Positions 10,616-14,353 of a DNA stretch of 64,000 nt are shown here, one piece after another; position 1 is the first letter of the stretch, and every line of letters starts with the position of its first letter. The notes beneath the pieces are model-generated. The model was not told the DNA's origin and did no database searches. It saw only the letters and a list, made by a program, of their open reading frames with translations. The position numbers and the translations under genes were made by a program. The DNA comes from Verrucomicrobiota bacterium (lineage in GTDB: Bacteria > Verrucomicrobiota > Verrucomicrobiia > Chthoniobacterales > UBA10450): NCBI GenBank assembly GCA_003218375.1, contig QHNH01000019.1, positions 62,001-126,000 on the forward strand, written 5' to 3'.

Positions 10616-10959
10616 ATAATTGATTCGCGCCAGCCAGTCTCGCTGAGCAGGAAAAGTAAGTCCATCTTTTCACGCGAACGGCAATTTTAAGCATAATGCG
10701 CGGCGCGACCGGCGTGGCCCTGATCGAAGTTTACGATCTTCGTTAGGCGGAAGGCCGGCCTCGTCCGCGCCAGTGCTACCGATCGAGCGGCAGCGGTAGC
10801 TCGCGCCGAAACCGAGGATTGACGTACGGGCGGTCCGTCAGGCAATCTTGGGCCCCTTCCAAACTCCCTCCGCCCCATGACAAAACGTACTGCGATTGCC
10901 GACCTCGGTTCAATCGTGACGCGTTCCCCCGGGGTCGGCGGCCTAACGAGGAAAGACCC
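10616..10959. other. Gene-free divergent promoter region
   Basis: About 340 bp with no convincing coding frame between the divergent cupredoxin and protein-glutaminase-like genes. It contains two copies of the 9-mer RCCTAACGA in opposite orientations (10740-10748 and 10941-10949). A purine-rich GAGGAAAG at about 10948-10955 is a good ribosome binding site for the ATG at 10960. No promoter boxes were recognised with confidence. Confidence 0.6.
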
Positions 10960-11916
10960 ATGAAAACTCAAACGAAAAGCATCAAGGAATCAGCCATTGT
11001 AACCGTTGCCGCGATCCGGCGATCGAAGAGCGGGCCGACCGAATACCTGTTCAACGAAAAGCAACGCATCTTCGAACTACGCGCCACGACGCGCTCGCGC
11101 GGGAAATCCACCGCATTTCTCGAGCACGCCCTGGACAGGAAAATGCCGGTAAGAGTTGTCCTAGACAGCCGGCGAAGCGTCATCGAACGAATCGAGCCGC
11201 TGTCCCGCGAAGAAGTCGCGGAGTTCCGCGGGAACAAACTCCTGCTCAAAGATCCCGAGCGATCGTTGCGCGTCGATGTCAAAAAGATCGATCCCACGGT
11301 CTTCAACCTCGTCGAGTATCATCTGAAGCTCCGGTGTTTCAGGCGCTGCCGGCGAATCATCCCGAACTACAAAACTGCGAAGAAGATGTTCGACTTCTGT
11401 GCCCAGCAATCCTGCAATTTGGGCGGACCTTTCAGCGTCACGCCGTGTATCCCGTTTCAGTACGTCCGGGACGGTTGCTATGCGCGCGCCCACAAGATGC
11501 GCTGGATCATCACCACGAAGTATCGCTATTGCTGCGAAAAGGTCTTCAGCTTTGCCAACCAGAACAACGACCGCCTGGCGGTGAAAGCCGACAAATGGGG
11601 CGGGTGCTGTGTGGCCTGGTGGTATCACGTCGTGCCCCTGGTGCGGGTGAGATTGAGGTTCGGGAGGTTTTCAATCGCCGTCGCGATGGTGTTCGATCCC
11701 GGGATGTTCGATAAGCCGGTTCTGTTGAGCACGTGGCTCGCTGCCCAGGAGAACACCGCCTGCAGCAGCAATGCCCACGTTTCGATGTACTCGATCCAGC
11801 CAGGAAGCGCGTATACTCCCGCGAATTACGCCGGCACCGCGTTTTCCACCGACCCGTCTTACACCGCGACAAACGCCACCTTGATCGCTTACAAAAACCT
11901 GACCACCTGCCCGTAG
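10960..11916 (+). CDS. Protein-glutaminase-like (protein glutamine deamidase) enzyme
   Basis: A 318-residue protein. Residues 160-250 match the protein-glutaminase (Gln deamidase) family: PCIPFQYVRDGCYARAHKM with nucleophile Cys173, WWYHVVPLVRV with His223, and MVFDPGMFDKP with Asp246, the usual Cys-His-Asp order. Such enzymes convert protein-bound Gln to Glu. The first 120 residues resemble a pro-region or targeting domain, with no signal peptide visible; ten or more additional cysteines are unusual. ATG 10960 was chosen for its strong GAGGAAAG ribosome binding site. A small gene follows 69 bp downstream and may encode a partner or inhibitor. Target proteins are unknown. Confidence 0.75.
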   Translation: MKTQTKSIKESAIVTVAAIRRSKSGPTEYLFNEKQRIFELRATTRSRGKSTAFLEHALDRKMPVRVVLDSRRSVIERIEPLSREEVAEFRGNKLLLKDPERSLRVDVKKIDPTVFNLVEYHLKLRCFRRCRRIIPNYKTAKKMFDFCAQQSCNLGGPFSVTPCIPFQYVRDGCYARAHKMRWIITTKYRYCCEKVFSFANQNNDRLAVKADKWGGCCVAWWYHVVPLVRVRLRFGRFSIAVAMVFDPGMFDKPVLLSTWLAAQENTACSSNAHVSMYSIQPGSAYTPANYAGTAFSTDPSYTATNATLIAYKNLTTCP

Positions 11917-11985
11917 ATCATCGGGGCTGGATGGCCGTGCTCGTTTACGGTAAACAAAAGGGCAGTGAGCATTAGCGAGCGCAGG

Positions 11986-12195
11986 ATGACCGTCGCGCAT
12001 ATCCGCGAACAGACTCAGGGAGACGCCGTCGAAGTCATGTTTCTGGAATCCGCCCGGTTTTATCGATTGCTCAAAAGCAAACCGGATTTCAGCGCCCTTC
12101 TGGAACGCCTGCGCGCTGCGAGGCAAAAGGGCGAACCAGTCGAGATCGCCATCGCATCGCCTGGCAGCGACCTCATTGGTGATGTTAAGAGCTAA
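11986..12195 (+). CDS. Small protein next to the protein-glutaminase-like enzyme
   Basis: A 69-residue cytoplasmic-looking protein (from ATG 11986; a GTG at 11965 would add 7 residues). It is predicted alpha/beta: MTVAHIREQTQGDAVEVMFL, then a helix FYRLLKSKPDFSALLERLRA and a last strand VEIAIASPG. No signal peptide, no membrane segment, no cysteine. I do not recognise the family. Its position directly after the deamidase gene on the same strand suggests a shared transcript; an inhibitor or immunity role is possible but only a guess from context. Confidence 0.55.
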   Translation: MTVAHIREQTQGDAVEVMFLESARFYRLLKSKPDFSALLERLRAARQKGEPVEIAIASPGSDLIGDVKS

Positions 12196-12694: not shown

Positions 12695-13480
12695 TTGTTT
12701 CTCGTTCCGCTCGCGGCGCTCGGTTGCTGGTTTGCGCGCCGCAAGGACCTGGCTCTGCAACGTAAATCGTTTTGGCGAACGATCCTCGTCCTGGCTCCGC
12801 TCGGTTTCCTCCTCGACCTGCTCTTTGGCAACACGTTCTTCATTTTTCCCAACAAGCTCGCGACCGTTGGAATCAATGTTCCCGCGCTCGGCGGCCCAAT
12901 CCCTGTGGAGGAATTTCTGTTCTATCTCACGGGATTCATGGTCGTGCTGCTGAGCTATATCTGGGGAGATGAATATTGGGTTCGTGCTTACAACATCCCC
13001 GACTACTCGGTCGCCGCCAGCGGCACCGACCGCATCGTCCGCTTTCATCTGGAATCGGTCCTTCTTGGCGCCGCGCTCTTGAGCACGGCGATCCTTTACA
13101 AAAAGCTCCTTTCTTCGTCGCCCGAAGGGTTTCCGTGGTACTTCACCTATCTCGTGCTCGCGTCAATCATTCCGTCGGCGGGCTTCTTCCGCACCACCCA
13201 GCGATTCATCAATTGGCGGGCGTTCGGCTTTACATTCTTTCTCATTCTGCTGGTGAGTCTGCTGTGGGAGGCGACCCTCGCTGCGCCATATGGTTGGTGG
13301 GGTTACCAACCGCCCGCGATGATCGGCCTCGACGTCGGCGCCTGGTCAAATCTTCCGGTCGAAGCCGTCTGCGTCTGGCTGGCCGTGACGTTCACGACGG
13401 TGATCACCTACGAAGTCATCAAGATCTGGAAGGCACTCGGGACGAAACCGCTGGAGGCGTTCTTTGGGATCAGGAAGTAA
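12695..13480 (+). CDS. Lycopene-cyclase-domain membrane protein (CarR/CrtYcd type)
   Basis: A 261-residue integral membrane protein with about seven helices. It carries GGPIPVEEFLFYLTGFMVVL around residue 70, the Pro-x-Glu-Glu motif of the lycopene cyclase domain found in heterodimeric CrtYc/CrtYd cyclases, and a diverged second copy near the end (NLPVEAVCVWLAV). Thus it looks like two fused domains. Such proteins cyclise lycopene to beta-carotene or act as related carotenoid membrane enzymes. No other carotenoid gene is nearby. The only start in frame is TTG 12695; a more natural first helix lies in another frame upstream, so a frameshift at the 5' end is possible. Confidence 0.75.
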   Translation: MFLVPLAALGCWFARRKDLALQRKSFWRTILVLAPLGFLLDLLFGNTFFIFPNKLATVGINVPALGGPIPVEEFLFYLTGFMVVLLSYIWGDEYWVRAYNIPDYSVAASGTDRIVRFHLESVLLGAALLSTAILYKKLLSSSPEGFPWYFTYLVLASIIPSAGFFRTTQRFINWRAFGFTFFLILLVSLLWEATLAAPYGWWGYQPPAMIGLDVGAWSNLPVEAVCVWLAVTFTTVITYEVIKIWKALGTKPLEAFFGIRK

Positions 13481-13492
13481 CGATGTCGCGGC

Positions 13493-14353
13493 ATGTATAA
13501 ATATTGCGGCGACTGGGGCGTGGACATAGTGCGCTTCTTGCAGCTTAAGGTGACGCCTCCGGATCAATTTAACGATCCATTCGAGTTCATGCCGGCTCCT
13601 GCTGGTTGTTTCAATCTATCCGATTTGAACGAGATAATGTCTAACGAGAAAGCGATGCGCGAAGACTTTGATACTCTCAAGGCGCAGGGCGCGCCGTTGC
13701 AAGGTTTCGAATCTTATCGGCGGTACCTACAACAACAGATTCAGAACGAGAAATTCACGGATAAGTTAAAGGGAGGATTCAAGACGATAGAAGCGCCCGA
13801 ACGTTGCAGGAATCTCTGTAAAGAAGTGAGCGAGTCCCTCGGCTTGGTTTGTTTTACAACCAAGCCGGAGAATCTACTGATGTGGTCCCATTATGCCAAT
13901 GGTCATAAGGGCTTGGTCATTGGCTTTGACTCAGATCACGCATTCTTTAATGAACGATGCCGTCTGCGCCCGGTAGAGTATCCCAAGAGTGAAGACGACC
14001 GCCGCTTCGTTTGGGATTTTTCACTCAATCCCGGCGACGATGGATACCAGTCAATGGCCGAGACGTTCATTGTCACGAAAAGTCGTCGCTGGCACTACGA
14101 GGACGAATGGAGGATGCTACTAGAGCTCGAAAGCTTGGAACGACGGCTAATTTGTGGTGGCGTGTTGGGCTATTTTATCAACTTTCCGGTTGGCGCGATA
14201 ACGAAAGTAATTCTCGGATATAGGTGTCCGTTCGATACAGAACAGGCTATCCGAGAGGTCATGAAGCTGCATGGACTGTCACCGCGTGACAAGCTGTTGC
14301 GGGCTGAACCGCACGCCACCGAATTCAAGCTGCAATTTGTGAATGCTGGCTGA
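13493..14353 (+). CDS. DUF2971 domain protein
   Basis: A 286-residue soluble protein starting MYKYCGDWGVDIVRFLQ. It has the DUF2971 signature: VTPPDQFNDPFEFMPA near residue 25 and LLMWSHYANGHKGLVIGFD near residue 130, followed by the SRRWHYEDEWRMLLELE block. Members are scattered in bacteria and phage, often in accessory or defence regions, with no established reaction. The start lies 13 bases after the previous stop. Codon use is less GC-biased than that of neighbours, which suggests recent arrival. The next gene is convergent and equally AT-shifted. Confidence 0.8.
   Translation: MYKYCGDWGVDIVRFLQLKVTPPDQFNDPFEFMPAPAGCFNLSDLNEIMSNEKAMREDFDTLKAQGAPLQGFESYRRYLQQQIQNEKFTDKLKGGFKTIEAPERCRNLCKEVSESLGLVCFTTKPENLLMWSHYANGHKGLVIGFDSDHAFFNERCRLRPVEYPKSEDDRRFVWDFSLNPGDDGYQSMAETFIVTKSRRWHYEDEWRMLLELESLERRLICGGVLGYFINFPVGAITKVILGYRCPFDTEQAIREVMKLHGLSPRDKLLRAEPHATEFKLQFVNAG

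What the first reader, a model, noticed from the sequence alone, without database searches (positions are those of the whole stretch)
10960..12195. Protein-glutaminase-like enzyme without signal peptide plus small neighbour
The Cys-His-Asp set (C173, H223, D246) is intact. Known protein-glutaminases are secreted; this one has no visible signal and an N-terminal domain of unknown type, and is followed by a 69-residue gene. It could be a toxin delivered by another route with a small inhibitor.
Basis: partly seen in the sequence, partly recalled or inferred. Interest (0 to 1): 0.5.

Follow-up and report, generated by a model that had tools for sequence, protein, structure and literature searches.

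The report
Protein deamidase with pro-domain-like inhibitor
A bacterial enzyme that changes glutamine to glutamate in proteins is encoded next to a tiny protein that looks like a free copy of the enzyme's own built-in safety cap, and the two genes sit side by side in most relatives examined, which suggests a way for cells to protect themselves from this enzyme.

Summary
Window 10960-11916 encodes a protein-glutaminase (PF18626) with an intact Cys-His-Asp triad. Its N-terminal domain "of unknown type" is the family's inhibitory pro-domain. The 69-residue neighbour is a second, free-standing copy of that pro-domain: profile comparison 98.8%, E 9e-17; its model's best PDB match is the pro-domain of pro-protein-glutaminase (Z 10.7, 1.2 A). 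The pair is conserved: 63 of 80 scan loci have the small gene downstream on the same strand. In 246 genomes of the Chryseobacterium family it is adjacent in 56 of 61 with the enzyme, and no adequate match lies in the 185 without it. Partners of signal-bearing enzymes carry hydrophobic N-termini; those of the nine signal-less enzymes (window plus eight loci of five named phyla) do not. The active-site loop is kept: invariant Ser, then Ala (32 of 56) or Gln (20 of 56). Best explanation: a trans-acting, pro-domain-derived inhibitor (immunity protein), working like SpeB-Spi but on a deamidase. Inhibition is inferred, not shown. "Toxin delivered by another route" lacks support: no T6SS sheath gene was found, and the genome's eCIS cluster lies on another contig. 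The papers searched showed no report of the pair.

The parts
10960..11916 (+). Protein-glutaminase (PF18626) in pro-form, 318 aa, no signal peptide
10948..10955 (+). Shine-Dalgarno-like GAGGAAAG upstream of ATG 10960
   Evidence: sequence
10984..11235 (+). cis pro-domain of the enzyme (residues about 9-92)
   Evidence: (residues 23-90 align with pro-PG 35-101, weak on its own)
11050..11073 (+). Active-site-covering loop of the cis pro-domain, FNEKQRIF; Q35 (11062-11064) at the position of pro-PG residue 47
11347..11913 (+). Catalytic (mature) domain, residues 130-318
   Evidence: 2zk9, Z 23.6, 172 aligned, 1.8 A
11476..11478 (+). Catalytic Cys173
11626..11628 (+). Catalytic His223
11695..11697 (+). 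Catalytic Asp246
11986..12195 (+). Small partner gene, 69 aa, a free-standing pro-domain copy (possible GTG start at 11965, then 76 aa)
12049..12063 (+). SARFY motif of the small protein: invariant Ser22, Ala23 at the pseudo-substrate position

Best explanation
The two genes form an enzyme-inhibitor unit. The enzyme is a protein-glutaminase made as a zymogen whose N-terminal OB-like pro-domain covers its active site. The small gene arose by duplication of that pro-domain and encodes it as a separate protein. It binds the active site in trans and holds down enzyme that has lost its own pro-domain inside the producing compartment, so it acts as an immunity protein. Shown here: homology, predicted fold, adjacency, co-occurrence, matching presence or absence of signal-like N-termini, and conservation of the active-site loop. 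Inferred: binding, inhibition, and the self-protection role.
For: Homology: the NCBIfam protein-glutaminase model matches the window's small protein over its pro-region (positions 54-110, E 5e-4) and matches 14 of 56 small proteins scanned. hhalign of 56 small proteins against 48 cis pro-domains gives probability 98.8, E 8.6e-17, score 77.8, against at most 14.9 in 50 column-shuffled controls. A profile of the 56 finds pro-protein-glutaminase 3a54/3a56 in the PDB at E 4e-7; the next hit has E 0.47. Fold: model pLDDT 94.3; best PDB matches are the pro-domain of 3a56 (Foldseek TM 0.85, 1.3 A, E 1.4e-3; Z 10.7, 65 residues, 1.2 A). Adjacency: 64 of 82 loci, i.e. 63 of 80 scan loci plus the window, L003 being the other miss. 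Co-occurrence: 56 of 61 enzyme-bearing genomes, none of 185 without the enzyme apart from two weak matches in long frames. In 40 genomes behind 41 of the scan loci, the matches, by coordinates and frame length, were the adjacent gene or the enzyme's own pro-domain. Flanks of 12 loci share no gene of 90 codons or more with one another beyond the pair, apart from a generic permease similarity. Localisation: among 36 pairs, 9 of 9 signal-less enzymes have signal-less partners and 27 of 27 others have partners with an N-terminal hydrophobic segment. Loop: Ser invariant 56 of 56, then Ala 32, Gln 20, Glu 2, Pro 2. Literature: propeptide removal raised Bacteroides helcogenes PG activity 17-fold, and the cut propeptide was either co-concentrated with the mature enzyme or still attached (PMC13139226, passages).
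Against: No binding or inhibition data; a two-chain complex could not be modelled here. 17 of 80 scan loci lack a detectable partner (L061 is cut by the contig end), as do 5 of 61 Chryseobacterium-family genomes (G852 has a broken copy), so the partner is dispensable in some; three of the 56 matches have a stop codon inside the matched stretch (G751, G763, G836). The Bacteroides helcogenes enzyme is active even with its pro-domain on, so the pro-domain fold need not be a full block. Gln at the pseudo-substrate position in 20 of 56 partners would be a substrate rather than a plain blocker. The fold match stands only 1.2 Z above unrelated OB-fold proteins (Z 9.5 and below), and Foldseek had no match at E 0.001 or better, with 8z3i at only E 0.33, TM 0.61. 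The Phd/YefM antitoxin family matches 2 of 56 members weakly (E 2e-4).
Confidence: 0.72

Rival explanations
1. The small protein is a folding chaperone or secretion escort in trans for the enzyme rather than an inhibitor, as pro-domains often are.
For: Same fold as the pro-domain, adjacent gene, matching signal-like N-termini.
Against: The enzymes carry a pro-domain in cis already, which could serve folding. The active-site loop is strongly conserved in the small protein (Ser 56 of 56).
Confidence: 0.15
2. The signal-less version is a toxin-immunity pair delivered by a contractile injection system or other non-Sec route.
For: No signal peptide in 9 enzymes and their partners. They keep the family's conserved cysteines and have three more (C130, C147, C191 in 9 of 9), odd for a purely cytosolic protein. 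The genome has an eCIS cluster with four eCIS_core proteins.
Against: No T6SS sheath match in the genome. The eCIS is on contig C27, the pair on C52, and the enzyme has no eCIS_core domain. Only 4 of 8 other signal-less genomes have the spike family PF04717, which also occurs in T6SS and phages.
Confidence: 0.12
3. The small gene is a Phd/YefM-like antitoxin or regulator unrelated to the pro-domain.
For: 2 of 56 members match PF02604 (best E 2.4e-4) and 1 matches TIGR01552 (6.3e-5).
Against: The window protein itself does not match. The model's best PDB match is the pro-domain of pro-protein-glutaminase; 14 of 56 match NF040782.
Confidence: 0.03
4. The small gene is a decaying duplicate without function.
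For: Absent in some loci, broken in G852, stops inside three further matches.
Against: Present in 56 of 61 genomes within a narrow distance (232-297 bases between matched domains) and across phyla. The cis and trans copies fall in almost separate branches (all 56 trans plus 7 cis on one side, support 99/90).
Confidence: 0.03

Closest known systems
Protein-glutaminase (EC 3.5.1.44) of Chryseobacterium proteolyticum, pro-form PDB 3a54/3a56, mature 2zk9; FBPG 8z3i
   Same: Catalytic triad, mature fold (Z 23.6, 1.8 A) and general pro-domain placement (8z3i Z 28.6 over 264 residues, 3.1 A; 3a56 Z 28.3 over 266, 3.7 A).
   Different: No signal peptide, below the Chryseobacterium equivalog cut-off (106.7 of 250 bits), Gln instead of Ala at the pseudo-substrate position of the cis pro-domain, more conserved cysteines. 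The downstream partner gene also occurs in Chryseobacterium, so it is not a difference.
SpeB-Spi (C10 protease with adjacent propeptide-analogue inhibitor; Kagawa 2005, not read, as cited in PMC2873492 passages)
   Same: Cysteine enzyme, and an adjacent small gene encoding a propeptide analogue that inhibits it.
   Different: The enzyme here is a deamidase, not a protease, and the pro-domain is an OB-like fold. Homology to Spi was not tested.
Propeptide-like cysteine protease inhibitors CTLA-2, crammer, BCPI (family I29; PMC4089206, abstract)
   Same: Free-standing pro-domain-like proteins that inhibit the enzyme in trans.
   Different: Animal proteins with cathepsin-type protease targets.
Bfp-Bfi pairs of Bacteroides fragilis (PMC2873492, passages)
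   Same: Cysteine enzyme genes co-transcribed with small genes for likely periplasmic or membrane-bound inhibitors.
   Different: Bfi resembles staphostatins, not the propeptide.

Membership tests
Protein-glutaminase (PF18626) | Pfam model above curated cut-off | tested here: met
   76.8 bits against 25
Protein-glutaminase (PF18626) | Cys-His-Asp triad | tested here: met
   C173, H223, D246; all 48 aligned enzymes
Protein-glutaminase (PF18626) | N-terminal inhibitory pro-domain over the active site | tested here: met
   Model aligns with pro-forms over both domains; profile match. Only presence and placement were tested, not inhibition
Protein-glutaminase (PF18626) | Signal peptide for secretion (characterised members) | tested here: not met
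   No hydrophobic N-terminus
Protein-glutaminase (PF18626) | Deamidation of protein glutamine | not testable with these tools
   needs an assay
NF040782 Chryseobacterium-type equivalog | Score at least 250 bits | tested here: not met
   106.7 bits
Pro-domain-like trans inhibitor (SpeB-Spi kind) | Small protein homologous to the partner enzyme's pro-domain | tested here: met
Pro-domain-like trans inhibitor (SpeB-Spi kind) | Gene adjacent to the enzyme across relatives | tested here: met
   63 of 80 scan loci, 56 of 61 genomes
Pro-domain-like trans inhibitor (SpeB-Spi kind) | Inhibits the mature enzyme | not testable with these tools
   needs an assay
Pro-domain-like trans inhibitor (SpeB-Spi kind) | Co-transcription | not testable with these tools
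   Same strand, 69 bases apart (48 from the GTG), no terminator-like site between the genes; no RNA data
T6SS effector-immunity pair | T6SS present in the genome | tested here: not met
   No VipA sheath match in the 97.8% complete genome; other T6SS genes not searched
eCIS cargo | Encoded in the eCIS cluster or carries eCIS_core domain | tested here: not met
   Cluster on C27, pair on C52, only PF18626 in the enzyme
Type II antitoxin Phd/YefM | Match to PF02604 | tested here: inconclusive
   None for the window protein, 2 of 56 small proteins weakly

The most novel reading that the evidence does not exclude
A two-stage lock on a deamidase. In the window and five other signal-less enzymes (6 of 9) the cis pro-domain presents a real glutamine to its own active site (Q35), so the enzyme could deamidate its own safety cap as a timer, while the separate small protein presents alanine there (9 of 9 signal-less pairs) and is a lock the enzyme cannot chemically alter. 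The unit has moved between phyla as a self-contained, signal-less deamidase-immunity module.
Probability: 0.17. Interest if true: 0.82.

Novelty: new variant of a known kind. Interest (0 to 1): 0.62.

Why it matters
Protein-glutaminase is an industrial food enzyme, and the papers I saw passages of treat it as a lone zymogen. If most natural copies come with their own trans inhibitor, that would explain how producers protect their proteins, gives a natural inhibitor to test, and shows that the "pro-domain copied into an immunity protein" solution known for SpeB-Spi also exists for a deamidase. The signal-less, cross-phylum version raises the question of where such an enzyme acts.

Tried and rejected
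Viral contigs: two scans gave no relative; phage records gave none; plasmids gave one, Sinorhizobium. Anti-phage-defence models match neither protein. The Sinorhizobium protein (L003) looked as if it held two tandem pro-like domains fused to the enzyme, which would have been a fusion link. The combined profile gives only 6.5 bits for the second (residues 87-147, E 4e-4 with one sequence searched) and 1.4 bits for the first, and the small-protein profile finds neither, so nothing rests on it.

In-frame readthrough from the enzyme's stop into the small gene: the window's two ORFs share a frame, but by coordinates others (such as L006 and L010) do not, so I dropped it.

One origin of the trans copies: the best tree puts 7 cis domains (six Chryseobacterium, plus L069) with the trans side (support 99/90), but holding the 56 trans copies together is not rejected (p-AU 0.186); columns are few. 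The nine signal-less enzymes are not one supported clade; they lie unresolved with L011 and L013.

Limits of the samples: the scan matched 240 relatives and kept the 80 most like the query, so 160 were not seen. The small-protein alignment holds 56 of the 64 found (L028, L037, L044, L070, L073, L080, L081 and L083 were left out), the enzyme alignment the window and 47 of 80 scan loci. L004's enzyme has no usual start codon ahead of its pro-domain and was read from stop to stop; L011 and L054 are cut at the 5' end of the enzyme. In one search at most 18 first-look candidates per genome were scored, so a weak copy could be missed. Several signal-less loci are on short contigs of metagenome assemblies, so single host assignments may be wrong. 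The AB5-toxin B subunits in the fold lists (up to Z 9.5 for the small protein, 9.6 for the enzyme's pro-domain) I take as a common OB fold; they were not pursued. The paper that solved pro-PG (Hashizume 2011) is not held. That residue 47 lies over the active site, and that the Ala47-to-Gln forms were an enzyme-substrate complex and an S-acyl intermediate, is recalled from its abstract; searches show only the two sequences and the PDB titles.

Full report
What is there. The ORF at 10960-11916 encodes 318 residues behind a Shine-Dalgarno-like site. It matches PF18626 Gln_deamidase_2 (E 1.7e-21) and the NCBIfam protein-glutaminase model (residues 106-317), below that model's equivalog cut-off. 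PDB sequence relatives are the Chryseobacterium proteolyticum protein-glutaminase structures and 8z3i. C173/H223/D246, matching the family's triad (Cys156, His197, Asp217 in PMC4214742, passages), are invariant in the 48 aligned enzymes. The AlphaFold2 model (pLDDT 93.8, pTM 0.92) aligns over both domains with pro-forms (8z3i Z 28.6 over 264 residues at 3.1 A; 3a56 Z 28.3 over 266 at 3.7 A), less tightly than the mature domain alone (2zk9, 172 residues at 1.8 A). So the N-terminal domain is the family's pro-domain, with some shift between the domains.

The neighbour. The 69-residue product has no Pfam family, but NCBIfam's protein-glutaminase model matches it over the pro-region. BLASTP between the two window proteins and phmmer against the PDB show nothing, so relatives were needed. 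One scan of genome contigs with a four-sequence alignment matched 240 relatives, of which the best 80 were kept (L004-L083). A profile of nine small proteins, iterated, found a homologous gene next to the enzyme, downstream and on the same strand, in 64 of 82 loci (63 of 80 scan loci, plus the window; the Sinorhizobium record L003 is the other miss; starts and gaps). A reversed-sequence control gave nothing better than E 1.4. Misses: L020, L023, L030, L032, L034, L035, L040, L042, L055, L057-L062, L069, L072; L061 is cut by its contig end.

Kinship to the pro-domain. hhalign of 56 small proteins against 48 cis pro-domains gives 98.8% and E 8.6e-17; 50 column-shuffled controls reached at most score 14.9 against 77.8. 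A profile of the small proteins picks pro-protein-glutaminase out of the PDB at E 4e-7, the next hit being at 0.47. The small protein's model (pLDDT 94.3) has the pro-domain of 3a56 as best PDB match (TM 0.85, E 1.4e-3; Z 10.7, 65 residues, 1.2 A). By fold alone the lead is modest: unrelated OB-fold proteins reach Z 9.5, and 8z3i ranks 23rd in Foldseek.

Conservation as a pair. In 246 genomes of the family of Chryseobacterium, 61 hold the enzyme. The small gene is adjacent and downstream in 56 of these 61, at 232-297 bases between matched domains; three of the 56 matches have a stop inside the matched stretch. Among the 185 genomes without the enzyme there are only two weak matches in frames of 440 and 234 codons (E 5e-4 and 8e-4), which I did not count. 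The five without an intact partner are G645, G769, G809, G817 and G852, the last with a broken copy. In 40 genomes behind 41 of the scan loci, 30 had matches and these, by coordinates and frame length, are the adjacent gene or the enzyme's own pro-domain. The own genome has one match to each family. The enzyme is rare near the window: 1 of 197 relatives searched, the own genome itself, and 2 of 387 in the phylum, the own genome and one broken copy. Twelve neighbourhoods compared share no gene of 90 codons or more with one another beyond the pair, apart from a generic permease similarity, so I infer that the pair moves as a unit.

Two location types. Bacteroidota enzymes and partners carry signal or lipoprotein-type N-termini. 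The window and L004-L010 and L056 (Xanthomonadales, Gemmataceae, Chlorobiaceae, Verrucomicrobia, Brocadia, Acidobacteria by record title; five phyla) carry none on either protein. Among 36 pairs, 9 of 9 partners of signal-less enzymes lack a hydrophobic N-terminus and 27 of 27 of the others have one. In L047 the enzyme's hydrophobic segment lies upstream of the ATG that I chose, and the enzyme of L011 is cut at its 5' end. These are not 36 independent events. Signal-less enzymes have three extra conserved cysteines (C130, C147, C191; 9 of 9 against 2, 4 and 2 of 39), which argues against a plain cytosolic enzyme and is unexplained.

The active-site loop. In pro-PG, wild-type and mutant PDB sequences differ at residue 47 (Ala or Gln), the residue over the active site (recalled from Hashizume 2011). 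At the matching position the small proteins have Ala in 32, Gln in 20, Glu in 2 and Pro in 2 of 56, in each case after an invariant Ser. The enzymes' own pro-domains vary more: Ala 19, Pro 11, Gln 7, Glu 7, Thr 4, His 1 of 49, with Ser before it in 11 of 49. In the window the cis copy has Gln and the trans copy Ala; this Q/A combination occurs in 6 of 36 pairs, and those six are signal-less.

Mechanism. Passages of PMC13139226 say that removing the pro-peptide raised activity of the Bacteroides enzyme 17-fold, that this enzyme is nevertheless active with the pro-peptide on, and that the cut pro-peptide was co-concentrated with the enzyme or still attached. A separate pro-domain binding in trans is therefore plausible. 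I conclude a trans inhibitor, most likely for self-protection. The nearest working analogue is SpeB-Spi, described as a propeptide analogue in PMC2873492 (passages).

Novelty. The listings of paper searches and passages of PMC9396377, PMC13139226, PMC6132073, PMC12791059 and PMC10318531 showed no mention of a partner gene. Only open-licence papers were searchable and none was read whole. One passage of PMC10318531 places PF18626 genes near Dot/Icm systems; I did not test this.

Noticed in passing
L085 (own genome, contig C27:157000-176900): An extracellular contractile injection system cluster: Phage_base_V spike, Baseplate_J, AAA ATPase and four eCIS_core proteins, one with a sub-threshold match to a toxin metalloprotease family.
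   Followed up: partly
L116-L118 (genome G817): A Chryseobacterium-family genome with nine protein-glutaminase matches, seven of them within 13 kb beside lipoprotein-type genes that look papain-like by eye, and no small partner detected.
   Followed up: partly
L002 (genome G508, same phylum): A protein-glutaminase remnant interrupted by five stop codons.
   Followed up: no
L003 4401-5513 (Sinorhizobium plasmid pEMPC1): A signal-less protein-glutaminase with an extended N-terminus that may hold two pro-like domains; support is weak for one and almost absent for the other.
   Followed up: partly
L006 6721-7554: A protein that looks caspase-like by eye, downstream of the pair; a possible activating protease, seen in this locus only.
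   Followed up: no
window 12695-13480: Weak lycopene-cyclase-domain match (below Pfam and NCBIfam cut-offs), followed by a DUF2971 gene (13493-14353) of lower G+C content.
   Followed up: no
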